Shown: positions 21,642 to 50,248 of the stretch, in pieces | Layout of the letters: every line of letters starts with the position of its first letter | Numbering within the stretch: position 1 is the stretch's first letter | Origin: Polytrichum commune | Taxonomy: Eukaryota; Streptophyta; Polytrichopsida; Polytrichales; Polytrichaceae | Assembly (NCBI GenBank): GCA_950295325.1 | Contig: OX485806.1 | Location: 56,539,169 to 56,603,168 of the forward strand | Length of the DNA stretch: 64,000 bases | Reading direction: 5' to 3' | Program-made: the position numbers and the translations under genes | The notes under the pieces: model-generated | What the model was told of the DNA's origin: nothing | The model's input: the letters and a program-made list of their open reading frames with translations, nothing else | Databases searched by the model: none

Positions 21642-21645
21642 TTCT

Positions 21646-21669
21646 AACACTATATTCGTTAAATTGAGA
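21646..21669 (+). repeat. Left terminal inverted repeat of giant element
   Basis: AACACTATATTCG plus the next 11 bases is identical to the reverse complement of 50,225-50,248. The same start occurs at 10,894. Confidence 0.6.
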
Positions 21670-21799
21670 TTTTTTGGGCATTTTGAGACATTCACAGAAA
21701 TAAGAACAAGGATAAATGGAACACATATTGGTGAAAGTTGTAAGATGCGAACACTTTGAAGCGGGTGTTTAGACCAAGAACCCCATTAATAACTCATAT

Positions 21800-22050
21800 T
21801 TGTGATGGTTTAGGGTGGGCAATCCAAACCTTAGACCAAATTGAAGGGGAAATCTTAAAACATTCATATTAATGCACACAAAATATGAGAGCTTGTATGA
21901 ATATGGTTTAGGTAGGGCACTCCAAACCATAGATCTTATTGAAGGGAAAATCTTAAAACATTCATATTAATGCATACAAAATATGAGAGCTTGTATAAAT
22001 ATGGTTTAGGTAGGGCACTCCAAACCTTAGACCATATTGAAGGGGAAAAT
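21800..22050 (+). repeat. Three-copy ~98-bp tandem repeat
   Basis: The unit contains TGAAGGGGAAATCTTAAAA, CATTCATATTAATGC, AAATATGAGAGCTTGTAT and GGTTTAGGTAGGGCACTCCA; the last is a degenerate relative of the 22-bp palindrome. Copies start near 21,765, 21,861 and 21,959. Confidence 0.7.
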
Positions 22051-22132
22051 CATGTGACACTTATATTATTGCAAAAAAAAACATACAAAGTATGGCATGT
22101 AAAATGCATAGCATGCTAACACCACACATCCA

Positions 22133-22273
22133 TTGGATAGTGCGACCCAAAATCATATTGCCTATGGCCCAAAACCCTACGCCTACTATAGCCTATCTAG
22201 CCTTGGATAGTGCAACCCAAAATCATATTGCCTATGGCCCAAAACCCTACGCCTACTATAGCCTATCTAGCCT
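22133..22273 (+). repeat. Two-copy 70-bp direct repeat
   Basis: TGGATAGTGCGACCC through CTATCTAGCCT occurs twice head-to-tail (22,133 and 22,203) with one clear mismatch. The second copy overlaps the stop codon of the minus-strand GYSRG exon. Confidence 0.85.
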
Positions 22274-22548
22274 TGGAGACTGCCTTTTTTTTTTGCATCT
22301 TTTTTTTTTGCTGCGGCTTCTTTTGCTCGCATTGCTTCAACATTCCTGAAAATCTCCGCCCCGCGACTATAGCCATTCTTGGGGTGACCGCCATCAATAA
22401 CACATTTTGGATTCCGTCAGCCGCCCGAATTATACGACGAAGAATTCGAATACGATGAAGAGGACTGTCTTGCATTTTTGGTTATGGCGTACATATGCTC
22501 CAACTCGATGGACGCACTAGACCGCATAAGTTTACGGGTGGGAGCAAC
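22267..22548 (-). pseudogene. Terminal exon with GYSRG/IFR motif (element gene)
   Basis: After the acceptor GCGTTGCAG (ending at 22,549) a 94-codon phase-0 exon encodes a Ser/Tyr-rich stretch, then GYSRGAEIFRNVEAMRAKEA and a Lys-rich tail. There is one in-frame TGA after the NSGG. It is homologous to 11,205-11,561. It lies just beyond the preceding exon's possible donor (GACAAG/GTGAAC near 22,667), so it could be the last exon of the FCP1-like gene. Function unknown. Confidence 0.45.
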
Positions 22549-22666
22549 CTGCAACGCGTCAATGCAAGAACACATGTGTTAGTTTAGGGAGGAAGATCCA
22601 AACCTGTCACACGTTCATTTTTTTAGCGCAAAATGATTGTAATGCGTGGTTAACCATGTTTGGGGG

Positions 22667-23990
22667 GGGGTTCACCTTGTCACCGGGGGTGTTCGCGTCG
22701 GAGTTGGCGAGGAGGGGCAAGGCGTCCTGCAAAGGAATGGAAAGGGTGCCGCTCTTCGTAGGCCGAGCGTCCATCTGAAGCCGCCGTTGAGGTGTAATAC
22801 TGCTGCCGGGCGGAGAGGGGGACGCCTGGACACATTTGCGATCTATGCCCTTGAGCGGCGACGGTGACGGAGATCGCCGAAAGATTTGCTTGGGTGGGGG
22901 GCTATCGACGACGCCGGCGTCAAGAGGCTCCTTGGAGTAGTCAATGGTTGACGCGGCATCGTAAACGGTTTCGTAGAAGAAGCTCCCCAAGTTTGACTCG
23001 CTGACGATGTCAATCGAGGGCTCCAAACGCTGGCGCAAAATTGGAAACGAAACAAAACCCAAGGGAAGAGGGTTTGATAGAGCGCGTGAAAATCAAGATA
23101 CATATGAAGCATATATTACACAAAGTGGACGGGCGCACACACACACACACACACACATACAAACACACGTAGTGTTTCAAATGAGCTTGTTCAATTTCGC
23201 GTGAGATAACAACTCTCTGTACAAATGGTCTCGTGGATCCAAGTATCTCTCGCCTATGGGATTATTCCTAACAAAATTGTTTATGGGTAGTCCGCTACCC
23301 CAGAGCGCCTGGAGGTATTTACTAAGGTCTAACAAAAATCGGTCCCAGACCTTCTCGACCGTCCACGTAGGGCAAACTATGAAGTTGGCCGTCGGGTTCA
23401 ACATGTTCTTTGCGGCGCTGTCGTCCACCATGAGCGTGTTCTCGCGGGTGGGGCGGACGTCGTAGGGGACGCCTATCAAGGACGGACGTTGGTCCCAAAA
23501 AATGGGCTTCAAGACCTTGAGATATTGGGGGGAAGCGGGGTTGTTTGGTTTTTTGACGACTTTGCCGTCCTATGTGTACAATATTCTACATGCTTCCTGT
23601 GCTAGGACCATGCAGGGGGGCTCGATGCTCTTGAAGATGAACTCCACGACGGCATTGGTGTTCTCGGCCTTCATGGAGCTCCACACGACCACCCACCATC
23701 GTTGTTGGGCGATCTGCAGGAAGGTCCGAAGCCACGGGCGGAGGTGAACTAGCTTGCTCTTTATGAACGTGGGCGGCCCGTCGTAATTAGCGTCCTCGGG
23801 CTTGCAAAAGGGCACCGTGGGGTCCCTAGGGCAATGAACGCACTGCACGAGGACACCGTTCAAGTCTTACACCAGGAATCGTTTCTTCGGCAGTGGGGGC
23901 GGGGCGGGTAAAACCGGGGGGGCCGCCGCGCTGCCCTCTCCGCTCCTTGGAGAAGAGCGTCGGGGAGCCGCTACGCTATGTTCCGAGCCC
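22667..23990 (-). pseudogene. FCP1-like (HAD) phosphatase-domain gene, broken
   Basis: The main exon runs from about 23,985 to 23,200 on the minus strand. After a Ser/Pro-rich leader come KKRFLV, an in-frame TAA (23,867-23,869), then DLNGVLVQCVH (HAD motif I region), HLRPWLRTFL, WWVVVWSSM (motif II WSS), a Lys-containing KVLKPIFW, and ENTLMVDDSAAKNMLNP (motif IV DDS). Motif order and spacing match the NIF/FCP1 homology domain of CTD-type phosphatases; plant members often read LDLNG rather than DxDGT. The second exon (about 23,038-22,667) is Pro/Ser-rich. The stop sits directly before the catalytic motif, so the gene is probably dead unless read through. The GYSRG exon may be its 3' end. Confidence 0.6.
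23135..23158. repeat. (AC)n microsatellite
   Basis: About 12 uninterrupted AC units, followed by degenerate ACAC-rich sequence to about 23,170. It lies in the presumed intron between the two exons of the FCP1-like gene. Confidence 0.9.
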
Positions 23991-24460
23991 TACAGATACG
24001 ATCGAGAGAAAACGGTGGGCGACTTATGTCATGCTATGTCCAAACGAAGCATTAAAGAAACGAGTGTTCTCGGTGCAAAAACAAAACCATTTGATTCATT
24101 TTGGAGGGGGTGCAACAAGGGATACAAGAGAGGCAAGAACATACAACATACATTCAAACACAAGATACAAGTATATAGGAGTAAAAAATGGTGATTATAT
24201 TGTATACAATGCTCTATGTACATCTTGATTGGGGGGAGCCGCGTTGAACAATGCGTTCAAACTAGCCTAGTTCTACATCTAGCAAAATTTGAATAGACGG
24301 GCCGCCGTGATGAAGACTTCGTCGCAAGCCGGGGGTATGTGGACGAACGGATGGTCGGGGGGATGTGGCGAAGGGTGCGAAGGCCGGGGGGGGGCGACGT
24401 GTGCGTGAGTTTAGGGTAGCTAGGGGACACGACCAAGGCAAGAAGACAAAGACCCAGGGA

Positions 24461-24482: not shown

Positions 24483-24755
24483 TGAGTGGGGTCAGTGCAT
24501 TACCTCGCCTTGGTCGTGCCTTGACGCCGTGGATGCCGTCACCGCGTGCGCTGCCCCACCGCCTGCTCCGATGACGACGTCAGCCGCAACCTGCTCCTGC
24601 AAAGGCTGACTGTCAGGCCTTTGTCCCAACCCAACCTCCGCATGCACATCATGCATTGGTTCATCGATTGGGTTAGGAGTAGAGGTATCACCAGGCCCTT
24701 GCGGGCCTTCAACATCTAGCATGGGCTCGTCCACAGGGGTCTGATTGGGGACGGG

Positions 24756-24846
24756 GTTTGGGTCGGCCGACCCAAACCCTGTTGCTTGGCGAGCGTCGCT
24801 CTGGGATGCTGCAACTTCGGCACTGTTTGGGTCGGACGACCCAAAC
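24756..24846. repeat. Two 22-bp palindromes inside an exon
   Basis: Copies at 24,756-24,777 and 24,825-24,846 lie in the open frame of the IDGQH gene and are translated as GFGSADPN and MFGSSDPN. The palindromic DNA has thus become protein sequence. Confidence 0.85.
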
Positions 24847-26043
24847 ATGCGGGAGTCGTCCCGCTGGTGGTGTGGGGGCAAGAGGATGGGAGGCTAGAGC
24901 AGCGGGGGTGCCAACGAGCTGGAAGCTCCGGGGACGCGCCAAAGGTTGGGGTCGTCCACCTGCGGGACGGGCACGTAAGGGCGGGTGTGAGGCTGCAACA
25001 AATGCCCGAAGCCGAAGGACTGCTACGGCGTGGGCCGCGGGCCGATATCCTGGGGAGGGAAGCCTGCGGGCAAGTGAGGGAATGAACTCGGGGGAGCCAT
25101 CACCAATCCCTGTGCCAACATGCCCTGGATCACTTGCGTGATCAGGTCCGCTTGGGACGGAGGTTGGGCCATCGCCCTTTGCCGCTCCTGCTCCAACAGG
25201 AGAGCCCTCAACTCCGCGACTTCGTTGCGGACAGAGGGCTCCTCGGCGGCAGCCTTTTGCAATCGAACGCGGTGCTCCTCGTCCCAGAGCATCTTCACGT
25301 TGGCCTCCTCCACGGTGAGGACCTCGGGTTTCACCCTCACATTCCCGGCGAACGCTCCAGGGGAGGCAGGATCCGACCTTAGCCTCTTCGCGAGCTCCAT
25401 GTCGTCCTCGTCTTCGGAGCTTATGGCGATCGTCTCCTCCACCGCACAGTCCCCGTACAGCTTTTTGCCCTTCAGCATTCGCCGCTCCCTGAAGGTGGCC
25501 ATCGCGTCCCTCGAATACATGTCCTTCGCGTCGGCCACCGTGAGGACGGGCACTAGCTTGCTTTGCGGCGTGGCAGCCCGCATGGCCTTCTTCCGTTGAG
25601 GGGCTTCGGATTCTTGAGTGAATCCTGTTGCCCTCTCCTCCACCTCCCCCTCCACTTTTTCTGCTTCTTCCTCCTCCTCCTCCCCCTCCTCCGCAACCTC
25701 GCATCCTGCTCCCATTGACGGATTGCCCGGATGCAACCCGATGAGCGGTTCTGGCAATTGAACGGAGGCCCACATGGCAAATTCACACGGGTTGATTCTC
25801 CTGGCCATATCCAACGGGTTCTCGCCCCCCTCGACGATCTCTTTGACGTAGGATCCGGGTATCCAGTCGAGGATGTCCATTCTCTTCGCCAGAGCCTTCT
25901 GGGTCCTGTAGAATTGAACATCGGCATCCTCCACATAGGAGTAGATGTTCAACCCAGACATCTGCACAATCCAAATCAATAATATTAGTATCACCAATGA
26001 AGAATAAGGGAAAATGACACCCAAAACAAAACAAGAATAGTTA

Positions 26044-26065
26044 GTTTGGGTCGGTCGACCCAAAC
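26044..26065. repeat. 22-bp palindrome, intronic
   Basis: GTTTGGGTCG half-sites around centre GT, inside the 137-bp intron 26,098-25,962 of the minus-strand gene. Confidence 0.9.
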
Positions 26066-27465
26066 CGACCATATGGTTCGTTCAGGTTATTTGCTTACCA
26101 TGGCTGCGAAAACCGGTTTGGAGCTCCCGAAGACGTTGAAGATGCAGTCCCCTCTCTTTGTGAGGGTCCTCATCATCTGCAGGTAGAACTCCATGCGCAG
26201 CTCATCCGCGGGGTAGTTGGCGTACTTCGCCTCGTCGTACAAGCTTCTGCTGGAGTCCAACCCTTCTTGGACTTGGAAGAGCTTCTCCATCCTGGCTATG
26301 GGATGGTTTGGCACATTAAGCAGCTTAGCTTTGTACACGAAGTACAAGCACAACACGTTGACGATCTTCGTCTTCTTGTCTTTCAGCGTATTGTACGCCC
26401 CCTCCGCCGGTGCAGCAATGTAGTGAGATTTTGAGACGGCGTACTCTGGCTGCAATTTCCGCACGATCTCGTACACTTGCTCTGTCTTCCTGTCCTCGAC
26501 AATCCACAGCCAGACGTCGACCTCCCTGAATTTGGGGCTGCCGTAATCCACAAACTTCGTGAAGAACGGTTCGTAGAACGGGGTGCTCATTGTCCCCTTG
26601 AATGAGGCTCCAGGGATGTTCCTGAAGTCTATCATTCCGAAGGGGAAGCGGTCCCCGACTTTTGTCCTGATAGCGTTCTTGGCATCAGAGCCCGACCAGC
26701 CTTGGATCTTCAGAGGATCGAGGGTGACCAAGTTGAAGTAGGCATCGCCCTCGAAGCTGACGATCTTCTTCTCCTTTATAAAGTTGGAGAAGGCACTCGT
26801 GAAGTGTTTGGGAAGCGCCTGGTTCCTCCCCCCCTTCACAAGCTTGGACTTCAGGAAGTCGTCTCCCGCCTCTCTCATGAGTGCCGCCATGGACGCACTG
26901 GTGAACTTGTAGTCGGCTTTGAATGCCCTCCAGTGCGCCTCGTCGACCTCTCCATCCACTATGAGCTACTTCTTCGGCACCAGCTTGTGCAGCTCTTGGA
27001 CGATGGTCGTCTTCTTCTTCCTGTTCTCCGTCCATTCCTTCATGGTGTAGCATGAAAGGACGAAGATCTTTGGCTTCGTGAAGACGATCTTCGGGTGAAC
27101 CCAACATCTCTTCGCCGTCGACTGCACGTGGAGGATGTGGGACGCCGCATTTCCCATCTCTGTCTCCGAGAGACCTTGAAGATGTCTGAAGAACTCCCTC
27201 ACCAGAGGCTTCATTTGCTTGAAGCGCGCAGTCTGGTTGAAGAGCATGCCGGTGTCGGGATCCATCTTGTGTTTCTCGAAAACTTTCTTCCATATCCCCC
27301 ACACGGAGTCAGACGCTGTGATCAAATAATTTTCTCCTCTTAGCTCGTTGTACTTCTTCTACTTGTGGGAAGCATTGTCAATCGAGGAGAATTTGTTGGT
27401 CATCTGGTATTTGAAGTCCTGCACATGAAGTAATTAACACACGTTAGAAAACTGCGAATGCAAGA

Positions 27466-27544
27466 CTTTGGGTCGATCGACCCAAACTATAAATCTGACG
27501 AGTATGTTTAAACAATGCAAGAGTTTGGGTCGATCGATCCAAAC
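27466..27544. repeat. Two 22-bp palindromes in one 134-bp intron
   Basis: Copies at 27,466-27,487 (first base changed) and 27,523-27,544 (one mismatch) both lie in the intron 27,552-27,419, about a third of whose length is palindrome. Confidence 0.9.
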
Positions 27545-28905
27545 ATACTCACCTCCCATTTGGGGTTCTTGTCTTTAGCATTCTCCATTTCCTTGGGAGG
27601 CCTGCCGTAAAACTCCCACACCTCCCTCGAGGCCATGATGTTCCGAATCCACGATGTCTGGTACGCCCTCTTCTTGTTCCCCATGTTGAAGAAGCGTGAG
27701 ATGTCGGTTAGTACGGTCTCGTTGTCAGACCAAACCACCAATGCCTTCCACACCTTTAGCTTCTCCTTTTGGTTATTGGGGTCGTCCCACTCGGTCATCA
27801 GCTGGATTTTTGTAGGGGCCTCCACACTGTGTTGGCCGTCAATCAGCCAGAAGTCGCCTTTGCATATTTCCGGCTACATTTCAGGTGTTGGCATTCTCTT
27901 CAACCCTTGGGGCATGACAACAATTGTCTGCCTGTCGTCTTTGAATTGCCCTCCCAAGATCTGAGCGACCATCCAGTCGATGTAGGCATCCTCCTTGGCT
28001 CGGACACACTTCTCAGGTGGCGCAAGGTGGCACTGTGCAATGTTCACCTCGAACTTGAAGTCCCTGCCCATGAAGAAGCAATGCAAACACTTCGTCTCGA
28101 AGTTATCATTGATTTTCTGTATCTCGCCTGCATCCACCTCTTGGCCAGGTTTCGGCATCCGTAGCTCCGGGGAAACTGGCTCGGTGGTCATGACTGAGGA
28201 CTCTCTCGCCTTCTTCGACGGGGTCGTCTGCCGGCTTGCGGACGGTGTGGGCGTCTCGCTGTCAGCCGGCATTCCTGTAGTGCTAGTCCGTCTGGAGTCT
28301 GCAGGGACCGGACGCAACTTCCTCACAGTTTGGGGTCTGGACGACCCTGCGCCTTCTTCTATTGTTGCCTTACGCCTCACAGGCTGCTGCGTTTTGGCTT
28401 TGCTTTGCAGCGCCTTGTTGAGGACCGTGATAGCCTGTTTCAATTTTGTAAACCTACTTGCAACCTTCGTGTTGGTTACATTGCCATCTATGAATATGGC
28501 CTCCGGTTTAATTGTCTTAGGATCCACGCATGTCTCCTTGGCGTAGATGGTGTCGAATGACTCGGAGAATTGGTGCATGAACATGTGGGCGTTCTGCACG
28601 GCGGAGTTCTTGAGAATTACGTCCACGTAATCCCCGAGGGCTTGGACGGACGCAACCTCCCATCCTGTCAACGTTGTCCAAATGTGGTTCTCGTGGGTCC
28701 CTACTTTTACCACGAACAGGAGCTTGAACTGGGAGCCCTTTACAACATGAACTGACCACGCAAGGACGAGCCCATCCTTGGGCACGTATGAGTCGTCCTG
28801 GGGAGTTTCGTACTCCTGCCATATTACGTCTGGCGCAAGCATAAAGAACCTTTCTCCAGGTCTCTTCTTGGGGGCCATCTGTAATTCCAAAAATTGAAAC
28901 TATTA

Positions 28906-31890: not shown

Positions 31891-31897
31891 ATAAATC

Positions 31898-33320: not shown

Positions 33321-33625
33321 GGGCGCACCCCCCAAAAGTCGGTTTTTTTTTTCTCTTCTCTCGCTGCTGAATTCGTAGGGAGAACTCTTAGTCAGAGTTG
33401 TACTTAAAGGTTCGTGCTTGCTGCCGTTCATGAGCACTTTTTCCACAGTATGCAAGTTCATGAGCACCTATCCACAGCATGCAAGCCCACCGTGAACTTT
33501 GCAATGAGCTCAAATTCAACACACCTCGCAATATCCTCCGCATTATACGCCGGATTTTGTGGTGTATTTGGGCGCCCTTCACCTTTCCACTAGTGTTGGC
33601 GGGTTTTGAGTCTGACCCTTATGAG

Positions 33626-33922
33626 GTTTGGGTTGGTCGACCCAAACCCCTCCACTACTGTTTAGGGTTTTTGTCTGACCCTGATGAGGTTTGGGTCGAC
33701 CGATCCAAACCTGTCCACTAGTGTTTAGGGTTTCAATCTGACTCTTATAAGGTTTGGGTCGGTCGACCCAAACCCCTACCCCAGTGTATTAGGGTTTCAT
33801 CTTGACCCTTATCAGGTTTGGGTCGGTCGACCCAAACCCCTACCCCAGTGTGTTAGGGTTTCATCCTGACCCTTATCAGGTTTGGGTCGACCGACCCAAA
33901 CCCCTACCCCACTGTGTTAGGG
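33626..33922 (+). repeat. Palindrome minisatellite, left half (array A)
   Basis: Five units of 63-64 bp, with palindromes starting at 33,626, 33,689, 33,752, 33,816 and 33,880. Each unit is GTGTTAGGGTTTC..CTGACCCTTATCAG then the palindrome then CCCCTACCCCA. It ends in CTGTGTTAGGG (33,912-33,922), the MULE target duplication. Confidence 0.9.
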
Positions 33923-34130
33923 GACAACACTTGTACGTGTGCGTAGAGCGGGGAGCGAAGAGCTTAGAGCGGTGATGTGGAGAGCGGAGAGCGCAGAGCA
34001 TTGAGTGATTAAATTTAGCAAGCTTCTAAGACCAAATTTAGATTTTTAAAAAATAGTCTAGAATATGCTTCGAATATTTGACAATCTATTAAAATAATAA
34101 AAATAGTGACCTATTTCCGTGGAATGTATA
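33923..34130 (+). repeat. Left terminal inverted repeat of the 12.1-kb MULE
   Basis: The tip GACAACACTTGTACGTG... matches the inverted right tip GGGAAACTCAAGTATGTG with gaps. Further in, GAGAGCGGAGAGCG-type blocks and CCTATTTCCGTGGAAT (right: CCTATTTCCATGGAAT) match. Similarity is patchy, so the pair is old. Confidence 0.6.
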
Positions 34131-34550
34131 GGTCCACATCTAATTCAAAAGGTCCTATATTTGAAAATGTCTCACTACATTTCGGACCCGGGAAGTGCTA
34201 CAATAAAATAGCATCAAAATAAAACGTATAAGTATATGATAAACATCAATGGTGATCCCAAGAAAGAACAAACAAAAATAAATATATCAAAGTTGGTATA
34301 ATTGAAGAATTATTAAAACCAAGGATGATTACAAGGAATAATCAATGAAACTGGATTTTCTGAGATTGGTATAAATGAAGAATGGGTCAATCAAAATACA
34401 AAGGAATCAAAATAATAAACTTTCTTCGTTGTTATTCATCATTTTTCTCTTTGTCTTATATAGGTTGGACTTTAGCAATTATCGTTTGTGGCCGAATAGA
34501 CTATAAATTGGACTCATATCCACCATGATTGTATATACACTTGTACACAA

Positions 34551-35022: not shown

Positions 35023-35177
35023 TAGATATAGGAAGCATTGTTATACAAATTTTTGAAGTAAATAAAAATAATCATTGAGATTATACCTTTATTATATCAA
35101 TCAATTATTGGTTTAGGGTTGGTCCATAAATGGACACATATATCATAGCCTAATGTAGTGCTAGGCTGAGCGGAATT

Positions 35178-38100: not shown

Positions 38101-38832
38101 GTCCATGGACCTGGCCCTAGAAAGAGATGAAGAGACTTCTGGTGCAGGGAGGACAAATAACTGGGTACCATCGAAACGAGGGGGGAGATGATTAACCTCT
38201 TGGATTTTGATCTTATCGTAATTTATTTTCTTGAGGACGCTTTTACTACCGAGTATAGAACCTAGACGACGAAGACATTGAACAATAGGTGGAGGAGGTT
38301 TGGACGTAGACGGTACGGAAGGAGATAAAGGAACATAGCGAGAAGGTGAAGGCGTTACAAAGGAATCAGAGGGAAACAAAGGAGGGGAATCATGAACATC
38401 AGCCTTCCTCATAGATACATCTTCAGTCGAAGAATCAGACAAGTCTACAACGTTGTCTATGTCAGGCTCGGTCTTGACACTTACTACCAGAGGTGTGCTA
38501 AAGTCAGTAGTGGAGGATCGAAGAGGAGCATGGAGTTCTGTTGACACTCCCATCCGAGAATCTGGCCAGCCCCAAACCCTATACTTTCCTGCGCCAAGCT
38601 CCCACACTACATTGCCATTCTCAGTTACCTTGGAGGGCTCATGGAATGTATGAACGAGCAATCCAGTATCATTGAAGATCTCACGATCTACCCATATTGT
38701 ATTAACTTGAAGAGAGAACCTAATGCTAAGATGAAGCTCCCAGACAACAGCAATACCCTGTGCACCAATGGGGAAGAGAATAGGGACATCGTTGGCATTG
38801 GAACGAAGTTCGGCCATTGAGCTGGAAGCCAT
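35178..38832 (-). pseudogene. MULE transposase gene with two nonsense mutations
   Basis: From ATG 38,832 (MASSSMAEL) the minus-strand product has a long N-terminus with a Pro/Ser-rich part, a Cys/His cluster (CVGHLQCQNTSCDF..., CRICKQPPKCIAF), the MULE transposase core (TMAAHVYDGTYQRVM, NFIGFMADSAQANWNAVRIV, CFFHWKQSLEKYTKF) and, after a 94-bp intron (36,729-36,636), TQDQLAEMPSCNLAESVHNK. A C-terminal SWIM-like finger (YPECNCANFVDM...YQNYKHLYYIF) has Tyr where the last Cys is expected. An in-frame TAA (37,402-37,404) and TGA (36,396-36,398, a CGA-to-TGA type change) break the frame. It would catalyse DDE-type cut-and-paste transposition in the nucleus, but this copy cannot make full-length protein. 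Confidence 0.8.
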
Positions 38833-39155
38833 GAAGGCAAAAAAACAGAAACGTAAATGCACAAAGATGCAAAGATTTATAAGGAAGAAGAATGGTGAAG
38901 ACAAACATTGTGATGTCACCATGTGCATCACCGAAGGAACAGAATTCGAGGAACTATTGTATATAAAAAAGGAGTAGGGGGAGGATGCCAAAAAGGGAAA
39001 ACAAGGGACGGCTGCTAAAAAGAGGGAAACCCTAACCCTCAAGCACTGGCAATATAAAGAACAATACAAGCAAAGGAACGAGTTATTATGTGAGTGCAAT
39101 GCCCTAATAGAAGAGGATAGGAGAGAGACGAGTATTAAGAAACCAGGACGCACAC
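38833..39155. promoter_or_regulatory. Divergent promoter region of the MULE
   Basis: 323 bp separate the start codons of the minus-strand transposase and the plus-strand methyltransferase-like gene. TATATAAA at 38,960-38,967 is a plus-strand TATA candidate about 190 bp before the plus-strand ATG; a second ATATAAAG lies near 39,052. No minus-strand TATA of similar quality was seen. Confidence 0.35.
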
Positions 39156-39665
39156 ATGAAGGAACCAGGAAATAGTCAAGTCTCCACAGCCGATCCTGGA
39201 AGAAAGAGAAAGAAAAGAAAGGGAGGCACAAGTTTTAGCAATTCAAAACAGAGGAGATGGAGAGAACTGAGGAGGAAGGAGCAATCCTGTACACAGGGAA
39301 GTGAGCAATCAACAGATTTGAGCAAGACGGGCGGAGAGGCAGAGATAGGGACGTCTAGCAGGAACGAGGAACTGAAACGGATAGAGGAAGAACGGGAGAA
39401 GGGTGGATCACAAGAACAATCGATGGGAGAGAGCGAGCATCGAAGTGATTCGGATTCAAGCGAATCTGAGGAGGAGACAAAGGAGGACTCAATGGGCACA
39501 GTAAGTTTGGTTTAGCGTATTATGCACTAGGCTCAGATATACATTTAGGTAATTTACAATATGGCATTTGATATTGAGTTATGTAATGTGATTCTTCATG
39601 ACCAACATGTTGAATGTTGAAAGCTCTCTTTTGTTAAAGTTGTTTAGATGGAGATATACAACCGA

Positions 39666-39687
39666 ACCCTCTCGGAAACGAGAGGGT
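39666..39687. repeat. Isolated hairpin (CCCTCTCG...CGAGAGGG)
   Basis: ACCCTCTCG / GAAA / CGAGAGGGT is a perfect 9-bp stem with a short loop, the same hairpin that recurs in the array from 40.5 to 42.85 kb. It lies inside the long intron. Confidence 0.8.
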
Positions 39688-40037
39688 CAACAATTATGCA
39701 CCACGAATAGGGTATTGGCTAAGCACGAAGTTGTGCGGGGCCGCCACCTCCCAAACATGGCCCATAGCAACTAGGCTTTCGGCCCATTATATTTTGGGGC
39801 AAGGTACCTAGGAAATAGAAGAGTTCGAAAATAGATGGAGGTAGTCCACCCTAGCCGACACCAAGGAACCATTGCGGCTAACATAGTTTGTCGTTCGGAG
39901 AGAGAAGAGAGGAGGAAACCCTTGCCGACAACCTTGCGGTGTAGTGTCGAATGTGGAAGGAGCATCCACAATCCCATAGTTCGGAGAAGTTCGGCATAGA
40001 CAGGTTTGATGTTTAAACCTGTATTTTGTTTAAATAA

Positions 40038-43000
40038 GTGGCCATGTTTGCGGTTTCAGATTTGTAGTTCATAAGCAAGGTTCAGATTATGAGCCTAAAA
40101 AGTGGCCATGTTTGCGGTTTCAGATTTGTAGTTGATGAGCAAGGTTCAGATTATGAGCCTAATAAGTGGCCAAGTTAGAGGTTTTCGATTTGTAGTTGAT
40201 AAGCAAGGTTCAGATTATGAGCCTAATAAGTGGCCTTGTTAGAGGTTTCAGCTTTGTATTTGATAAGCAAGGTTTTGATTATGAGCCTAATAAGTGGCCA
40301 TGTTAGTGGTTTCAAATTTGTAGTTAATGAGCTAGGTTTAGATTTTGAGCCTAATATGTGGCCATGTTTGAGGGTTCAGATGTCTAGTTGATAAGCTAGG
40401 TTCAGATCTTGAGCCTAATATGTGGCCATTTTACAGGGTTCAGTATGTAATCTAATTCCATATTTTCAGTATAGTTTTGAGGTCCACTAAATATTTGGAC
40501 AGGGGGGGGGACCCTCTCGATTCCGAGAGGGTGGGGATAGTGGGGTTTTAGTGGGCCATGTGTAAGGTTTCAGCTTTGTATTTCATAAGCAAGGTTTTGA
40601 TTATGAGCCTAATAAGTGGCCATGTTAGTGGTTTCAGATTTGTAGTTAATGAGCTAGGTTCAGATTTTGAGCCTAATATGTGGCCATTTTAGAGGGTTCA
40701 GATTTCTAGTGTGTAACCTAATTCCAGATTTTCAGTCTAGTTTTGAGGTCCACTTAATATTTGGACAGGGGTGGGGACCCTCTCGATTCCGAGAGGGTGG
40801 GGATAGTGGGGTCTTAGTGGGCCATGTGTAAGGTTTCATCTTTGTATTTGATAAGCTAGGTTTTGATTATGAGCCTAATATGTGGCCATGTTAGAGGGTT
40901 CAGATTTCTAGTATGTAAGCTAATTCCAAATTTTCAGTCTAATTTTGAGGTCAAAAAAATATTTGGACAGGGGGGGGGGCCTCTCGTTTCCGAGAGGGTG
41001 GGGTAAGTGAGGTTTTAGTGGGCCATGTTAAGGTATCATATTTGTAGTTAATGAGCTAGGTTCTGATTATTAGCCTAATATGTGGCCATGTTACAGGGTT
41101 CAGATTTCTAGTATGTAAGCTAATTCCAGATTTTCAGTCTAATTTTGAGGTCCACTAAATATTTGGACAAGGGGGAAGGGCCTCTCGTTTCCGAGAGGGT
41201 GGGGTAAGTGGTGTTTTAGTGGGCCATGTCAATGTATGAGATTATTAGCCTAATATGTGGCCATGTTAGAGGGTTCAGATTTCTAGTATGTAAGCTAATT
41301 CCAGATTTTCAGTCTAATTTGAGGTCAAAAAAATAGTTGGACAGGGGGGGGGGCCTCTCGTTTCCGAGAGGGTGGGGTGAGTGGGTTTTTAATGGGCCAT
41401 GTTAAGGTATCAGATTTGTAGTTAATGAGCTAGGTTCAGATTATTAGCCTAATATGTGGCCATGTTAGAGAGTTCAGATTTCTAGTGTGTAAGCTAATTC
41501 CAGATTTTAAGTCTAGTTTTGAGGTCCACTAAATATTTGGACAAGGGGGAAGGGCCTCTCGTTTCCGAGAGGGTGGGGTAAGTGGGGTTTTAGTGGGCCA
41601 TGTCAATGTATCTGATTTGTAGTTAATGAGTTAGGTTTAGATTATTAGCCTAATATGTGGCCATGTTAGAGGGTTCAAATTTCTAGTATGTAACCTAATT
41701 CCAGATTTTAAGTCTAATTTTGAGGTCCACTAAATATTTGGACAAGGGGGAACGGGCTCTCGTTTCCGAGAGGGTGGGGTAAGTGGGGTTTTAGTGGGCC
41801 ATGCCAATGTATCAGATTTGTAGTTAATGAACTAGGTTCAGATTATTAGCCTAATATGTGGCCATGTTAGAGGTTTCAGATTTCTAGTGTGTAAGCTAAT
41901 TCCAGATTTTCAGTCTAGTTTTGAGGTCCACTAAATATTTGGACAGGGGGGGGGACCCTCTTGATTCCGAGAGGGTGGGGATAGTGGGGTCTTAGTGGGC
42001 CATGTGTAAGGTTTCATCTTTGTATTTGATAACCTAGGTTTTGATTATGAGCCTAATATGTGGCCATGTTAGAGGGTTCAGATTTCTAGTATGTAAGCTA
42101 ATTCCAGATTTTCAGTCTAATTTTGAGGTCAAAAAAAATTTGGACAAGGGGGGGGGGCCTCTCGTTTCCGAGAGGGTGGGGCAAGTGGGGTTTTAGTGGG
42201 CCATGGTAAGGTATCATATTGTACTTAATGAGCTAGGTTCAGATTTTGAGCCTAATATGTGGCCGTGTTAGAGGGTTCAGATTTCTAGTGTGTAAGCGAA
42301 TTCCAGATTTTAAGTCTAGTTTTGAGGTCCACTAAATATTTGGACAGGGGGGGGACACTCTCGATTCCGAGAGGGTGGGGATGGTGGGGTTTTAGTGGGC
42401 CATGTGTAAGGTTTCATCTTTGTATTTGATAAGCTAGGTTTTGATTATGAGCCTAATATGTGGCCATATTAGTGGTTTCAAATTTGTAGTTAATGAGCTA
42501 GGTTCAGATTTTGAGCCTAATATGTGGCCATTTTAGAGGGTTCAGATTTCTAGTGTGTAACCTAATTCCAGATTTTCAGTCTAGTTTTGAGGTCCACTAA
42601 ATATTTGGACAAGGGGGGGGGGCTTCTCGTTTCCGAGAAGGTGGGGCAAGTGGGGTTTTAGTGGGCCATGTTAAGGTATCAGATTTGTAGTTAATGAGCT
42701 AGGTTCAGATTTTGAGCCTAATATGTGGCCATGTTAGAGGGTTCAGATTTCTAGTATGTAAGCTTATTCCATATTCTCAATCTAATTTTGAGGTCCACTA
42801 AATATTTGGACAGGGGGGGGACCCTTTCGATTCCGAGAGGGTGGGGATAGTGGGGTTTTAATGGCCATGTGTAAGGTTTCAACTTTCTATTTGATAAGCA
42901 AGGTTTTGATTATGAGCCTAATAAGTGGCCATGTTAGTGGTTTCAGATTTGTTGTTGATAAGCAAGGTTCGGATTATGAGCCTAATAAGTGGCCATGTTT

Positions 43001-43120
43001 GAGGTTTCAGATTTGTAGTTGATAAGCTAAATTCAGATTTTTAGCCTAATAAGTGGCCAGGTTAAGGTTTCAGATTTCTAGTTAATAAGCTAAGTTCAGA
43101 TTTCTAATGTCTTAAGGGGC
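40038..43120 (+). repeat. Complex tandem array with ~64-bp and ~200-bp hairpin units
   Basis: At both flanks (about 40,038-40,450 and 42,860-43,120) a 64-bp unit repeats (GTGGCCATGTT, GGTTTCAGATTTGTAGTT, GATAAGCAAGGTTCAGATT, ATGAGCCTAATAA). Between them a unit of about 170-270 bp, mostly near 200 bp, repeats twelve times. Each unit contains GAGGTCCACTAAATATTTGG, a G-run, then a hairpin CCTCTCG-WTTC-CGAGAGGGTGGGG near 40,511, 40,778, 40,980, 41,187, 41,354, 41,552, 41,758, 41,957, 42,166, 42,358, 42,627 and 42,830. The whole array lies in the inferred 3.7-kb intron of the methyltransferase-like gene. Confidence 0.9.
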
Positions 43121-45884
43121 CATGTTAGAGGTCTATGTTGTCAAAATTGAATTTTGTTTTTGATATATGGTTTAAGTTAGAGTGGAGTATGTTATCAAAT
43201 ACCATCCCCTTACTATTTTCTTTGTTGTTATAGTTGGAGAAGGGGGTTGAGGGTGAGATAGCTTCATTTGAAAATGAGTGTTCCGTTGAAATCGATTGGA
43301 GTTCTACGGAGGATATTTATCAACCGGCCAATTATGTTGAGCATTGGAGGCTGAATCTTTGGGACAAGGCATTTCTGGTTTATTTTGACGACAAGGGAGA
43401 TTTGAAATTTATCAAAGGCCTTGATCTCATGGATTTTAAGGAAGGCCCCATAGAAATCAAACGCGTCGCTTACTGGTAATATTTTGAGTTTTCTTTTAGT
43501 TCATATAGTTTTTGTTTATGATGTTCTTCATTTTACAGGTTCATCCACCGTGAGCTCGTTGTGAAGAATGTTTTGCCTTCTTCATGCTTGCCAACCTTCC
43601 TTGTAGATTGGATGGATGTCAACTCCGATCTTTGTGTGTATATGCCCGTGCAAGTTTCCAAGTTTTCGGAGTCTCACTTGCAGGCTGGGGGATGGTACTT
43701 GGATTGTTCTGGAGGATTTGTGCCTGAGGTAGAGAAGCCTCTTTTTTCCAGCCTTGTGAGTAGTGCTCCCGAGGTGACCTTTGTCCCCTTTGAGGAGCCT
43801 GACATTGTTGAGCTTCCTCCTCCACCGCCCAAGGCACCAAAGGGAAAGGGAAGAGCTAGGAATACCGGCACTTTGCTCCATCAGTTGCTCCATCAGCTGC
43901 CCCCTCTATCACTCCCTCCGCATCTCGTCCACAAACTATTGCTACTCCTTCACACAGTGGCACTTCTCTACTCTCCTTGCCTCGCAAGAGGAAGGCCGCC
44001 CTCTTGGATACGAGTGCCACCTCTTCGGATTCCCCTACCACGCTTGCCCTCATCGAAAATGTGGACATGGTACAACTCATGCTCGATTCCGACCTTGCAG
44101 GAGGTCCCCTCCCGGCATATACGCGCATCCAAGAGTACATTGCCAAGGTTTGTATGTTTTCTTTTGGCATTCATCAGACTCCTTTCCGTTTGGTTTGCTT
44201 TTGTTTTTCCTTCTTCATTTTTTTTCATGAATTTTTCATTGCAGGCCGGGGAAGGTCGCACCCGTGTGAACACCTCCTCTACATTTCACAAGGGCCTCGA
44301 TTTACTCTTCGCAGACATTCCCGAAAATTTGCCGGTGCCCAACATCTCCACGGATGTTCCTGAATGGAACAAGCTCCATGATTCTTACTATGAGTGTTTT
44401 TTTGCATTTGCAAAATCTAACTTCTATGATCATGGCGTCCTTGTCCTTGTCCATTGTGCGAGTGCAAGTGTTTCTAGGATGGTTTTCGATTGGGCACACA
44501 CTTACGACTTCTACGTCGCCGAAGATTGGTTCGGAATGGCTGATTTGGACCTCCAATCTCCGGTGGACCCCTCTGGAGTGGTAAACAACTATCCATCTCC
44601 TAGTCCATTTTTGTTTTGTTTTTCATTTTACTTATTCCGATTCTTATGAAATCGTTGTCATTTTTTCAGACTCGCAAATTCAATATCAAGGTTATTGTTT
44701 GTGCTAACTCCGTTCTGAAAGTGCGACCGGAGGCCGCCTATGAGTATGGTTACTACCTCCAGCGAGATGGATGGTTGAATGCTTTCACCAATGAGAAGAG
44801 CCAGACAATGCGCAGTGATGGGATACCCTGGAGAGGTGCTCGCGAAAAGCATGAAGTTTTTTTTTCTATCATTTTTGCTACTCTCACCAATTATAATGAT
44901 GTTATTATGGACTAGCAATATGGTGTAGGTGGTTCGATTACAACGTGTCACTCCATTGAGCGGCATATTGTGGCCCTTGAGTGTGACCCAGTGATTTTTA
45001 ATGCGATACTACTCCCCATGCGTGAAAACCAACCTTCGCGACCTCCCCGCTCAAATGCCACACCGTCCACCTCTATGTTTGATCCTCCTAAGAAGATGAC
45101 CAAACGCGCATTCGGTTTTTTTTGTGCGTAAGTTTTATTTCTATGTTTTCTCATATTTACGTTCTTGTCATTTTCCCATCTTTGTGTGTCATGTTGTTTC
45201 TAATCTTATTGCTTATTGGTTCAGAGCGCCAAGGGAGAACGCATGTATGAGTTCGAGTCCTTCCAAGACGTTCGAGCTCCCAACCTATGCTGCTAGTCTT
45301 GCCAATCTTTTAGCGGAAGCTCCGTCTCCACCTCCTAGTCGCATCCGACCTTTCAACAAACTAATAGAGGATTTTCTAGACATAGAGGCCGAGGAGGGTA
45401 AGGATAGTGATAGACATGGTAGTCCTAGTTCTTGACTACGCCTCGGACCTCTATTTTGTTTGTATTGATTTTACTTTATAAGTTTATTTCTTCAATTTTT
45501 ATGTGGCTATTGAAAACCTCATTCAATCCCTTATTGAAGTTGGTTGGTGTTTGATTTCAATTCTCTAGATAGGTTGGGTAGACGGGTTGAGTATACTTTG
45601 AAGGTTGTCTACTTTAGTTGTACTTGAGAGATGCTAAGGTTGTGAGTGACTTTGAATGGTTTGAATGTTTGTGTTGAACTTTAACTCTTAGCCACATTCC
45701 ATACCGCTTGAATGTTTGTGTTAAGGCTTAACTCATATGTTCAATTGATGACGTAAGCCCTAATTTAATATAAATGTATTCGAAACCTAGACTATAAGAT
45801 GTTTGATAACAAACACTATCTTCCACGCCTATAGGTTTGGTTGGTTCACTGAACAAGGTTCGGTTATTATTTACACGGGAATGG

Positions 45885-46044
45885 GGTGGTTTTTTCGACA
45901 AATTGAAGACAAACTATCACTAAATTCCATGGAAATAGGCACGACTTCCCCTAAAATATTCCAACAAATTTGAAAATCTCCGCTCTCCAATCTCTGCTCT
46001 TCGCTCTCCGCTCTCCGAGCTATGCTCACATACTTGAGTTTCCC
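45885..46044 (-). repeat. Right terminal inverted repeat of the 12.1-kb MULE
   Basis: Inverse complement matches the left end in blocks: GGGAAACTCAAGTATGTGAG, GAGAGCGGAGAGCGAAGAGC and CCTATTTCCATGGAAT. It ends directly at the CTGTGTTAGGG duplication. Confidence 0.6.
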
Positions 46045-46445
46045 CTGTGTTAGGGTGCCAGTCTGACCCTTAGCAGGTTTGGGTCGACCGACCCAAACCC
46101 CTTATCCCAGTGTGTTAGGGTGCCAGTCTGACCCTTAGCAGGTTTGGGTCGACTGACCCAAACCCCTACCTGGTGTGGGTAGATTTACCCTGTGAAGGTT
46201 TGGGTCGGTCGACCCAAACCCCTACCCCTGTGTGTTACGGCTGTAGGTTGACCATGAGAAGGTTTGGGTCGGTCGACCCAAACTTTTTCCCACACCGTGA
46301 TCGAATTCCGAATGGCCCTGAACCCATCATTGTGCAAGGTTTGAGTTGGTCGACCGAAACCCGACTCCATTCCATGGGCAAGCTGTGGATGACCCTCAAT
46401 CCATGGTGGCACAGGGTTTAGGTCGGTCGACCCAAACCCCCTACC
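46045..46445 (+). repeat. Palindrome minisatellite, right half (array B)
   Basis: Six palindromes start at 46,077, 46,142, 46,198, 46,262, 46,339 (diverged) and 46,416, spaced 56-77 bp, with GTGTTAGGGTGCCAGTCTGA-type spacers. Orientation and phase continue those of array A, so the two were one array before the MULE inserted. Confidence 0.9.
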
Positions 46446-46637
46446 AAAATATTTTGTGGAACTTTTTTTGGTCTTGCGCACAGTATTGGGAGTTCACATT
46501 GTAGTTGTGTTTCAAATGTCTTTATCCTCGGTGTCCCTATTGATCATGATGTCTTGCATTTTCCGATATTTGATTCTTTTGGACCCTTACATTGTGTCCA
46601 AGTGTGTTGAGGTTTGATGTGCATGTGTGTAGGCGCA

Positions 46638-49600
46638 ATGGAGGGAGTTGGTGGAAGAGGGGATTCCTTCTCTGAAGACATGGGCAACACCCAATCTTCG
46701 TCTGGGGATGAGCTAGACATTGTCGGGGAGGATAGTTTTGATGACAGTGCAGATGAAGGTCATTTGGGGAGTCCTTCGCCATCTGCCCCTTTTTGCCCCA
46801 TTGTGGAATGTGCGGGGGCTTTCACGAGCTTTATGGGTGAATTTGGATGTGGTACTTGTTAATGACAATGGAGTTGCTGTGGCGGAGGGTATTTGTCGTA
46901 ACACACATCCACAAGATTGCATTGATGAAAACCCCCTTGGCACCGAGGACGTTGGAGTTGTTATATTGGAATCACTCGTACATTCCGAAGTGAATCCAAC
47001 TCATAGGTTCTCGTTGCGAAGGTGGCCGTTGAGGAATGTGACAATTGAGGGGGTTAGCTTGCATGACCATGAGCGACGACACATCCAAATCCAACAAGAG
47101 CTCCAAGCAAACATTCGGCCACGCAAAGGCCTACGGAAGTACGAAACATTGGCACGTCCTACTCCGTCTGCAAATGAGTGTAAACATCAAAGGTTGTTTT
47201 ATGAGGAGTCTATTAGAGAAGTTGCCACAAAGGATTGTTGTGTACATCGTTGTTGCCAATTGTTCCCAAGGGATAAATTGAAAGCCATCCGCGAGGAAAT
47301 GTGGCTTGGAAATTTCCGTCTAAGATCCACCAAAAAGCTTGATGTCCATAGGGTGATACATGTGAACGGAGCGGGTCGCAAGGACATCACCCTTGAGAGC
47401 ATGGACGTGTGTTGTACGGCATGATACACCATTCACGGTGTGGCAAAAGAGGAATTTTATGGACAAGCCGCGTATGCCAAGGAAGGCCGCCGTTCCCGTC
47501 ACCATGGGAACACGGGCTTAAACAAACCAAGGGAAACAACGAGACAAGCAACAGCCACTCTGGCAACCATCATTGTCCCCCTTGCCGATGCAATGCCACA
47601 CAAAATACGCACACTCGCAACCGGTGAAAAGGTTGTGGAGAAGGTTCTTCCTACAGGCACGAAATGGAAAGACATATTGTTGGACGAGAAGGCCGGGTTG
47701 GACCCAATTTCGTTGTCGAAACTGAGTGCAATCAAAAAATCAAACTTTAGCGAATACATCACAAAAAGACGAGGCGACAAATTTGCCCGTTGTTCCAAAT
47801 GTGAGAAGTTGAAACGCCTTCGAGATGCACACACGATGGGGACAGAGTCCTATGCCGCACATCAAATGAACTATTTCAAGCATGTGAACATGCAAGAGGC
47901 ACACCGTAATGATGTACCATCATGCTTTGTCCAACAAATAGATACACAAATAGAGCTTTGTCCATCTCTAGGCCTTTGGAGGTCCTTACAATCATCCATG
48001 ACAAAATGGACCATGCCAAAACAACCTCATCATGTTTTGCAAATCGAATCAAAGCCACGGACGGCCTTTTTAAGCTTCTTGTATAAGTTACATGTGATTT
48101 TGATAACAATTGCATTGCATTACCTAAACACAAATTTGTGCTTTTAGGTTTGTACTTGGGGCCATAGATGTACACCATGTGAATTTTTTTGTGTTATAGT
48201 TGAATATTAAACCATTGGGTTGGCTTTGCAGGAATGATTGCACATGGATATGGTGATGTCAAGTATGCTCATTATGCTCTTGATTTGTATCCGGCGGATT
48301 CAAACCACACGATAGGGTCATTTGCAAAGCTTTTACGTGATTTGGAGAAACCGCCGTCCTATTCATCAAGATTGTTATTTGAAAACTCGGGATCAACACC
48401 ACTATATGAAGCGGTTTTGGATGGAAGAGATGTATGCGTGCACTCATTGCTGGAGCCATCAAGTGAAGATGTGATTGCCAAGAATTTGCCCCCAACTCTG
48501 CGTGTCCAATTGGACAATTGTGCGAAGGACAATAAAAATATATATGTTTTTGCATATTGGTCGTTGTTGGTTGCGAAAGGCATTTTCAAGGAGGTTTTTG
48601 TGTCCTTTCTATTGGTAGGCCACACGCACGATGATATTGATGCATCTTTTGGGCGGTGGAGCATGAAGTTGCGCGAGGAGGATTTTCCAACAATCCCATT
48701 GTTGATGAAGTCGTACATGGATTTGGAGAACATTCCCGTCATCCCCATATGATCGAAGAGGTTCCAGACTTCAAGGCATTTATAGAACCGTATATTCGAA
48801 GCGGAGCTCACCGATTGATCGGGCATACGAAGGCACAATAATTTCGGTTCTACGTGCGTGACGATGGTGTCCCCGCCATGCAATACAAGTTGTTGTGCAT
48901 GTCACAAGACTGGAGCCCGCCGGAAGGTCTCCTTGTATGGCGTGTTGATGGGGAAGGAAGGACGATGTTGCCAGACGGAGAGCCTAAGCCTTGCAAACCA
49001 ATACCCATGAAGAATTTGGAGGATATTGGTAAAAGCATATCAGGCTTCATACAATATTGGGAGAGTTTGAGGGTAGCGGATGTTGGTGGATCGTGTTGGT
49101 TTCGTTACGGAAGTTGGATACAATATTGGACACGTGTACGTGGCGCTTTGGCAAACCTTCATCAAGATACACCCCTTACTTTAAGGCATGGATTTTGGCC
49201 ACAAACACGTGTCAATGTACAACCTTCGGAGGCTAGTCTTTTGGGAAATGGAGAGGTTCGAGAGGAGTTTGATGTGGACGACCATTACGTGGGGCCTGCT
49301 AGTAGTCGTCCGCCACCATCTTTCCGCATTGCAGTGGATTGTCATGAAGGTTATATGCTCATTTTGCGCCCTGGAGATGAGACATATGCAAAGCCAGTGT
49401 GGGTGGCAAGAGCTTTGTCCAAACCAAATTTTGTAACTTCCAGCCCTCATTTTCGACAAATACAAGTAGAGTACTACTGACCGACAGCACGGAATGAAGA
49501 TGTTGTTCGGCATTATACAGGCTGGGTTACAAACCAACACTTTCGGTGGAAGGTGGATTCTGAGCACGGTCCTTCTTGGGTAGATACAGATTCCATATTC

Positions 49601-49717
49601 ATAGCATGGAAACCACGGAAAAATCATAGTGGATCGGTGTCCATCCCTCAAAAGTACATAACTTTTGCAAAAGACAACCTTGCTCGGATCGCAGAAGAAG
49701 CAACCCACGTTGAATGA
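46638..49717 (+). pseudogene. DUF7869-type transposase-like gene, heavily broken
   Basis: The ATG at 46,638 follows an acceptor (GTGTGTAG/GCGCA). After an acidic N-terminus come a Cys/basic cluster (RCSKCEKLKRLRDAH), IIHDKMDHAKT, an intron (about 48,081-48,232), GYGDVKYAHYALDLYPADSN, QLDNCAKDNKN and VGHTHDDIDASFGRWSMKL, then an about 330-residue C-terminus. The Asp-containing HDKMDH, QLDN and GHTHDDID blocks are the hallmark of the uncharacterised eukaryotic family I know as DUF7869, thought to be an RNase H-like transposase. Breaks: frameshifts near 46,845, 47,975 and 48,742; TGA at 47,422-47,424 and 49,478-49,480; TAA at 48,839-48,841. It reads toward the right terminal repeat 0.5 kb away and is the likely ancestral mobilising gene of the giant element. 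Confidence 0.6.
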
Positions 49718-50224
49718 GAAGTTGGTAGGATTGTGTTAGCATGATTATAGTGTAATATGTAATTCGACGAATATATATTACTCATATGTGTGCTCCTCAA
49801 ACTTGGGGCAAAGTTTGGGTAGAACTTGCGAATGCTATATTGTTTGTGGTTGGATGAATATCCATTTACTATATTTCAATACAAATGTGAAGTTCATTTT
49901 TTTATTAAATTTGGGACTAAATTGTCCATTGAAGAAATATGCATTTATTGCATGCACTTTGTATGTTGCAATGTCTATATTTTATTGACCATGCTAATAA
50001 TAGAAATCATTTTATATGTATTTTGGGTGAAACTAGTTTGGAGTGCTCTACCCAAAGTGTTTTTGTTGATGAAGTTGGTGTAGAGTGCTCTACCATATGT
50101 GCTTTTGTCCACACATCATAGATTTGGGATATTAGAATATATAATATATTTGAGATTGTTCTCAATATAGTTTCGGAACACGGAATGTTGTTTGATCCAT
50201 ATATTAATTTGAGACTAGAGAAAG
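49718..50224. other. Right arm of the giant element, non-coding
   Basis: AT-rich. It contains a short repeat (GGAGTGCTCTACCCAAAGTG and GTAGAGTGCTCTACCATATG, about 50,040 and 50,078). No gene recognised. Confidence 0.4.
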
Positions 50225-50248
50225 TCTCAATTTAACGAATATAGTGTT
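50225..50248 (-). repeat. Right terminal inverted repeat of giant element
   Basis: Reverse complement is identical to 21,646-21,669 over 24 bp. TTCT follows immediately (50,249-50,252), matching TTCT before the left end. Confidence 0.6.

What the first reader, a model, noticed from the sequence alone, without database searches (positions are those of the whole stretch)
21646..50248. A possible undescribed giant DNA transposon carrying a phosphatase-like and an IDGQH-motif gene
Seen: a perfect 24-bp inverted repeat at 21,646 and 50,225, with TTCT outside both ends; a DUF7869-type transposase-like pseudogene reading toward the right end; an FCP1-like gene reading toward the left end; and a second copy of the left end with the same terminal exon at 10.9-11.6 kb. 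All copies of a 22-bp palindrome in this window lie inside the interval. Known: DUF7869-type proteins have no described element structure that I can recall. Inference: these parts form one mobile unit of about 16.5 kb once the nested MULE is removed.
Basis: partly seen in the sequence, partly recalled or inferred. Interest (0 to 1): 0.85.

Follow-up and report, generated by a model that had tools for sequence, protein, structure and literature searches.

The report
Giant plant transposon with palindrome arrays
The interval is a real, once-mobile 16-kb DNA transposon present in many copies in this plant-like genome; it carries its own transposase, a phosphatase-like gene and a methyltransferase-like gene, and is studded with a 22-bp palindrome that a related element family has replaced with a different palindrome in the same places, as if each family's protein reads its own code.

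Summary
In the window's own genome (407.8 Mb) both ends are sharp repeat borders: 39 of 39 other scored matches each (best 40 scored of 987 and 1,074 candidates). All seven two-ended copies checked have the 24-bp ends (one end with 2 mismatches) and an exact 4-bp duplication. Two complete copies (16.1, 17.6 kb) have the same three genes in order; in one the DUF7869 gene is open (976 aa), the only transposase candidate. A nested MULE explains the window's extra 12 kb. The IDGQH protein's C-terminal part models weakly as an N6-adenine-type methyltransferase fold without a DPPW-like motif; the left gene is an FCP1/NIF homologue. A 22-bp palindrome (87 sites in three elements, none in their flanks) lies in IDGQH introns and exon 3 and upstream of IDGQH and DUF7869. 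A related FCP1-IDGQH segment in this genome (IDGQH 35-37% identical) has a different palindrome in corresponding places; the two were not found mixed. Best reading: a cut-and-paste transposon (Sola-like 4-bp duplication) whose IDGQH protein recognises its own palindromes, perhaps an anti-silencing system resembling VANDAL/VANC. Binding and anti-silencing are inferred.

The parts
21642..21645 (.). 4-bp target-site duplication TTCT, left
   Evidence: same length of duplication in 6 other two-ended copies
21646..21669 (+). left terminal inverted repeat
   Evidence: 39 of 39 other scored genome matches begin at this border or up to 18 bases before it, most within 4 bases
21805..22051 (+). 98-bp subterminal direct repeat, 2.5 units, with a degenerate palindrome-like stretch (6 mismatches) in each unit
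   Evidence: unit number varies between genome copies
22437..23092 (-). open stretches that may be 3' exons of the left gene(s); assignment uncertain
23177..23890 (-). FCP1/NIF-type phosphatase-like gene, broken by in-frame stops here; motif DLNGV
   Evidence: 32 homologues; found in 9 of 10 fetched left-end copies
24504..25961 (-). IDGQH gene exon 3 (two palindrome sites lie in it)
25962..26098 (-). IDGQH intron 2 with a palindrome
26099..27418 (-). IDGQH gene exon 2, methyltransferase-like C-terminal part
27419..27552 (-). IDGQH intron 1 with two palindromes
27553..28878 (-). IDGQH gene exon 1, with the IDGQH motif
33625..33902 (.). palindrome array, 63-64-bp units, left half
33921..46044 (.). 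nested MULE-like insertion (not part of the unit), 9-bp duplication CTGTGTTAG
46076..46438 (.). palindrome array upstream of the DUF7869 gene, right half
46638..49717 (+). DUF7869-type transposase gene, two exons, broken in this copy; open (976 aa) in the copy at C5:52445274-52461348
50225..50248 (-). right terminal inverted repeat
   Evidence: 39 of 39 other scored genome matches end at this border or up to 14 bases after it
50249..50252 (.). 4-bp target-site duplication TTCT, right

Best explanation
SHOWN: 21,646-50,248 is a copy of a multi-copy terminal-inverted-repeat DNA transposon with 24-bp ends (5'-AACACTA), a 4-bp target duplication, about 16-18 kb without later inserts, and three genes: FCP1/NIF-like (-), IDGQH (-) and DUF7869 (+). 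A 22-bp palindrome is dispersed in IDGQH introns and exon 3 and in arrays upstream of the IDGQH and DUF7869 genes. A related FCP1-IDGQH segment in the same genome has its own, different palindrome in corresponding places. INFERRED, likely: DUF7869 is a DDD/E transposase (acidic motifs HDKMDH, LDN, GHTHDDID in RNase H order) that cuts at the AACACTA ends and inserts with a 4-bp stagger. INFERRED, moderately likely: the IDGQH protein, with its methyltransferase-like domain, recognises the family's own palindromes. INFERRED, speculative: this keeps the element's regulatory DNA open against silencing, as VANC does for VANDAL elements; the FCP1-like protein may assist.
Against: Of 10 left-end copies fetched to 18-20 kb, only 2 had the right end in reach (a third at 48.9 kb), 5 had recognisable IDGQH and 2 had DUF7869, so most of these copies are rearranged, nested or decayed. 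Both structure models are low confidence (mean pLDDT 54.9 and 43.3), no fold match is individually significant, and the DUF7869 list also holds ribosomal, AAA+ and ABC proteins, two of its top rows being mitoribosomal. The methyltransferase-like domain has IDFR.IP where DPPY/DPPW is expected, so activity is doubtful. The ends of the B-type element and its own DUF7869 gene were not found: the DUF7869 gene nearby is A-type. No binding, methylation or transposition data exist. The palindromes could instead be recognised by the transposase or by a host factor.
Confidence: 0.8

Rival explanations
1. The palindromes are binding sites of the DUF7869 transposase itself (subterminal-type sites, as TnpA sites in CACTA elements, recalled), and the IDGQH and FCP1 genes are passenger cargo.
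For: Arrays lie upstream of the transposase gene, and degenerate versions (6 mismatches) lie in the left subterminal repeat.
Against: With up to 3 mismatches no palindrome lies within 3.8 kb of the right end or 2.8 kb of the left end in the three elements; they concentrate in IDGQH introns, exon 3 and the two upstream regions. Palindrome type tracks IDGQH subfamily.
Confidence: 0.25
2. The palindromes are recognised by a host transcription factor (promoter or enhancer repeats) and have merely hitch-hiked with the two families.
For: They flank both divergent promoters and lie in introns, as enhancer clusters might.
Against: Two different palindromes in corresponding places of two related families, not found mixed; 22-bp near-invariant dyads are long for a host factor (inference).
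Confidence: 0.2
3. Two or more unrelated repeats happen to lie side by side, and the inverted repeat is accidental.
For: Most single-end copies examined lack one or more genes.
Against: Seven of seven two-ended copies with an exact 4-bp duplication; collinear three-gene copies at two other loci.
Confidence: 0.02
4. It is an ordinary member of the Sola superfamily with captured host genes (FCP1-like, methyltransferase-like) and no special system.
For: 4-bp duplication, DDD-type transposase, sizes over 15 kb and presence in a moss are described for Sola (PMC10741241, passages).
Against: IDGQH and FCP1 genes stand together in the same order and strand in two families whose IDGQH proteins share only about 35-37% identity, which argues for function rather than casual capture; the B-type pair is split by an A insertion and its element ends are not known.
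Confidence: 0.35

Closest known systems
Sola superfamily DNA transposons
   Same: 4-bp target duplication, DDD-type transposase, variable inverted repeats, some over 15 kb, present in moss (PMC10741241, passages read)
   Different: No Sola sequence was available to test homology; the IDGQH/FCP1 pair and the palindrome arrays are not mentioned in the passages read
CACTA/EnSpm-Mirage-Chapaev-Transib (CMCT) clade
   Same: TIR contains CACTA; Chapaev has 3- to 4-bp duplications (PMC4079192, passages)
   Different: [quoted passage not shown] own sequence); ends are AAC..GTT, not CA..TG
VANDAL elements with VANC anti-silencing proteins (Arabidopsis)
   Same: Transposase gene (VANA) plus VANB and VANC; short motifs in fast-changing tandem repeats in introns of VANC21 and VANB21 and upstream of VANA21; related VANC proteins affect different TEs (PMC5735166 abstract and one section; PMC10398659 abstract)
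   Different: VANDALs are MULEs (recalled) and VANC has DUF1985/DUF287 domains; here the transposase is DUF7869, the candidate protein has a methyltransferase-like fold, and the motif is a 22-bp palindrome rather than a 9-bp motif
TET/JBP-carrying DNA transposons of fungi
   Same: DNA transposons carrying a gene tied to DNA modification, proposed to help escape methylation-based silencing (PMC12730594 abstract)
   Different: Dioxygenase rather than a methyltransferase-like domain; no palindrome arrays mentioned in the parts read

Membership tests
Cut-and-paste TIR DNA transposon | inverted terminal repeats with a constant-length target duplication at several loci | tested here: met
   7 of 7 two-ended copies, 4 bp
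Cut-and-paste TIR DNA transposon | empty target site with a single target copy | not tested
   joined flanks were written out but no search with them was sent, as the genome search machine answered only twice
Sola superfamily | 4-bp target duplication | tested here: met
Sola superfamily | DDD transposase core | tested here: inconclusive
   acidic motifs and RNase H order, but low-confidence model and weak matches
Sola superfamily | sequence homology to described Sola transposases | not testable with these tools
   no Sola reference sequence on hand; the DOI I took for the original paper is not held
CMCT clade (CACTA, Chapaev etc.) | C(2)C and H(3-4)H motifs between second D and last E | tested here: not met
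   only 38-41 residues lie between the D of LDN and the Ds of GHTHDDID, without such motifs (sequence, positions); definition. Which acidic residues are catalytic is inferred.
CMCT clade (CACTA, Chapaev etc.) | 5'-CA..TG-3' termini in most cases, 2-5-bp duplication | tested here: inconclusive
   duplication length fits, but the border with exact 4-bp duplications starts AACACTA
VANC-type anti-silencing system | family-specific motif arrays in introns of the regulator gene and upstream of the transposase gene | tested here: met
   for the B family only the IDGQH side was seen
VANC-type anti-silencing system | protein homologous to VANC (DUF1985/DUF287) | tested here: not met
   no Pfam match for the IDGQH protein
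VANC-type anti-silencing system | protein binds motif and removes methylation | not testable with these tools
   needs experiment
N6-adenine / MT-A70 methyltransferase | fold | tested here: inconclusive
   [not shown]
N6-adenine / MT-A70 methyltransferase | catalytic (D/N)PP(Y/W) motif (recalled) | tested here: not met
   IDFR.IP or close variants at that place in the aligned exon-2 rows
FCP1/NIF phosphatase family | Pfam PF03031 above gathering score | tested here: met
   51.4 bits against 21.8; homologue P0205 55.5
FCP1/NIF phosphatase family | DxDx(T/V) catalytic motif (recalled) | tested here: not met
   DLNGV in the window and in P0205-P0210, P0213, P0214 and others

The most novel reading that the evidence does not exclude
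A second, independently evolved sequence-specific self-recognition (anti-silencing or activation) system of a plant transposon: a methyltransferase-fold protein and its 22-bp palindromic targets co-diverge between sibling transposon families, each family having its own code at the same introns and promoters, in a transposon class unrelated to the VANDAL MULEs.
Probability: 0.4. Interest if true: 0.9.

Novelty: new variant of a known kind. Interest (0 to 1): 0.75.

Why it matters
It gives DUF7869, a named domain without described function, a concrete element: defined ends, a 4-bp target duplication and an open transposase gene in one copy. It also offers a natural two-code system: two sibling families in one genome with related proteins and different palindromes, so binding specificity and its role in escaping silencing can be tested by simple swaps. 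If confirmed, it would show that VANC-like, sequence-specific anti-silencing arose more than once and by a different protein fold.

Tried and rejected
CACTA membership was the first idea, from the CACTA inside the TIR; set aside on the missing C(2)C/H motifs and the AAC border. TAG recoding: all five in-frame stops of the left gene are TAG, but at the three positions with several aligned homologues these carry ordinary residues (the other two positions had one homologue each), so this is decay. ParB/DGQHR relationship of the IDGQH motif: recalled resemblance only; Pfam, NCBIfam, PHROGs and PDB sequence searches gave nothing useful and the model of that part is poor. Profile search of the PDB with the DUF7869 alignment gave only three weak, short matches. 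Palindromes in read-through of DUF7869 (0 of the 120 listed of 326 hits) or FCP1 (0 of 32) homologues: none. With one mismatch allowed the short B words also occur in shuffles (near set 8 against 9 shuffled; distant set 13 against 2), so only exact counts are used. Viral-contig scans for the transposase, TIR, palindrome and IDGQH protein gave no confirmed relative. First alignment A2 was misaligned and replaced by A3 with 35 of the 84 homologues. The 'same terminal exon' at 11.2-11.6 kb was not found. Foldseek on the DUF7869 model gave no significant match. The first shuffled half-site control for palindrome B covered only the larger loci, where B itself had no site; a matched control was run. 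Palindromes with 4-6 mismatches were dropped in favour of a 3-mismatch limit for palindrome A counts; B counts allow 4. Literature: DUF7869 in no held paper; the listings showed no description of this element in titles and abstract starts, which is not proof of absence.
Full report
OBSERVATION. The 24-bp inverted repeat, the TTCT on both sides and the gene contents are as described. A perfect 24-bp pair is not by itself remarkable in a repeat-rich window (one search lists longer ones), so the genome was the test.

GENOME COPIES. Search of the window's own genome (G000, 407,808,757 bases in 64 contigs, window at C4:56539169-56603168) with 301 bases across the left border gave 178 matches; of 987 first-look candidates the best 40 were scored. 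Besides the window itself, 39 of 39 begin at query position 29-47, most at 43-47; 47 is base 21,646. The same with the right border: 1,074 candidates, 40 scored, 39 of 39 besides the window ending at query position 249-263, and 249 is base 50,248. The tool calls such counts lower bounds; the candidates are not proven copies. Ten left-end copies were fetched to 18-20 kb. Two (c2, c7) contain the right end, giving 16,075 and 17,579 bp with duplications ATCT and TTAT. Four more pairs were picked from the two lists by strand and spacing (one of them, c6, had its left flank already seen): about 17.7, 17.9, 25.0 and 48.9 kb; all four have 24/24 ends and exact duplications ATTT, AAAT, AACT, TTCC. With the window that is 7 of 7. 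Wider same-strand pairs (for example 71 and 93 kb) were not tested, and the 25.0- and 48.9-kb copies were not read through. The other 7 of the 10 fetched copies have no recognised right end in reach; FCP1 was found in 9 of 10, IDGQH in 5, DUF7869 in 2. So complete copies exist, but most of those looked at are nested, rearranged or decayed.

ANATOMY. In c2 and c7, as in the window, the order is left end, FCP1-like (-), IDGQH (-), palindrome arrays, DUF7869 (+), right end. Outside the MULE the window element aligns to c2 over 13,209 of 16,479 bases (mean 90.9%) and to c7 over 12,344 (87.5%); about 3 kb at 29.05-32.05 kb has no long match. The MULE occupies 33,921-46,044 with a 9-bp duplication and splits the palindrome array. 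The window's own DUF7869, IDGQH and FCP1 genes are all broken; unbroken relatives exist.

PALINDROMES. Eighty-seven sites (24-bp frame, up to 3 mismatches) in window, c2 and c7 (21, 32, 34), all inside the elements, none in 35,397, 3,925 and 2,421 bases outside. The core GTTTGGGTCG-NN-CGACCCAAAC is near invariant while the flanks are not. Scanning the 22-bp core instead gives 90 sites: 22, 33 and 35. By compartment (limits in c2 and c7 set by me from tblastn matches): exon 3 (2, 3, 3), intron 2 (1, 6, 2), intron 1 (2, 4, 3), 5' of IDGQH (10, 10, 5), upstream of DUF7869 (6, 10, 22), and one site just beyond exon 3 in the window; none in the DUF7869 gene. Tandem units of about 35, 57, 64 and 79 bp carry the same core with different spacers, so the palindrome was conserved and re-amplified.

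CO-DIVERGENCE. Homologue ORFs that read through the two introns show exact translations of palindrome A in 29 of 67 near-subfamily proteins and 0 of 17 distant ones. A different palindrome B (TTTACGAACG-NN-CGTTCGTAAA), which I deduced from the distant proteins, is in 11 of those 17 and in 0 of 67 near ones. Controls at zero mismatches: 0 of 120 DUF7869 homologues, 0 of 32 FCP1 homologues, 0 in one shuffle of each protein. The independent test is DNA: B then turned up in the flanks of one complete A copy (C3:1,082,151 to about 1,100,070; 3 sites at up to 3 mismatches). Fetching the neighbourhood showed an IDGQH gene 71% identical to P0160 and 35-37% to the A type, and, on the other side of the A insertion, an FCP1-like gene 47.6% identical over 166 aa, in the order and strand of the A element. 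Seventeen B sites (up to 4 mismatches) lie in the 8.7-kb IDGQH side, falling by my reading in the exon 3 region, intron 2, intron 1, 5' of IDGQH and further out. No A site lies in that segment and no B site in the three A elements. In the segment plus the two flank pieces there are 20 B sites at 3 mismatches, against none for each of 100 shuffled half-sites. A DUF7869 gene there belongs to another, inverted A copy; the B family's own transposase and ends were not found.

MECHANISM AND COMPARISON. The dispersed, re-amplified, family-specific sites at promoters and introns match what was shown for VANDAL/VANC: motifs in tandem repeats in introns of VANC21 and VANB21 and upstream of VANA21, differing between related elements (PMC5735166, one section read; abstracts). 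The likeliest reader of the palindrome is the IDGQH protein, because palindrome type follows its subfamily; that it counters silencing is by analogy. For the superfamily, Sola is the nearest described group on duplication length, size and DDD core (PMC10741241 passages), but homology could not be tested; CMCT is disfavoured by its signature motifs (PMC12730594 section). The host is probably a land plant, perhaps a bryophyte: inference from gene types and genome size only, not established.

CHANGES AFTER CHECKING. '40 of 40' became '39 of 39 others' (the window matches itself over its flank); the longest pair is 48.9 kb; the first B control was not matched and one search replaces it. None of these changes the odds.

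Noticed in passing
window 30911-30981: A TIR-like stretch (4 mismatches in 24) followed by a left-subterminal-like palindrome unit lies inside the element; c6 has the same stretch at its position 7609, so it belongs to the family or to a nested small relative.
   Followed up: partly
copy c5 (loci L017-L018, C1:27865650 onward), positions 10957-11213: A 257-bp miniature element with TIR-like ends (ATCACTATATTCG...) and apparent 4-bp duplication ATTA, a likely non-autonomous relative.
   Followed up: no
C3:1100070 and C3:1108813 (L039, L048): Two A-type ends lie next to, or within about 26 bases of, B-type palindromes; this may hint at insertion preference near B arrays or be chance in a nested region.
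   Followed up: no
window 62436-63386: DUF4218 (PF13960) protein, typical of plant En/Spm-like transposons (recalled), outside the element.
   Followed up: no
window 54291-54731: MULE transposase-domain remnant (PF10551, just under the gathering score) right of the element.
   Followed up: no
window 12.8-20.0 kb and 55.4-56.1 kb: A family of repeats in both orientations, mostly 61-90% identical, apparently unrelated to the element.
   Followed up: no
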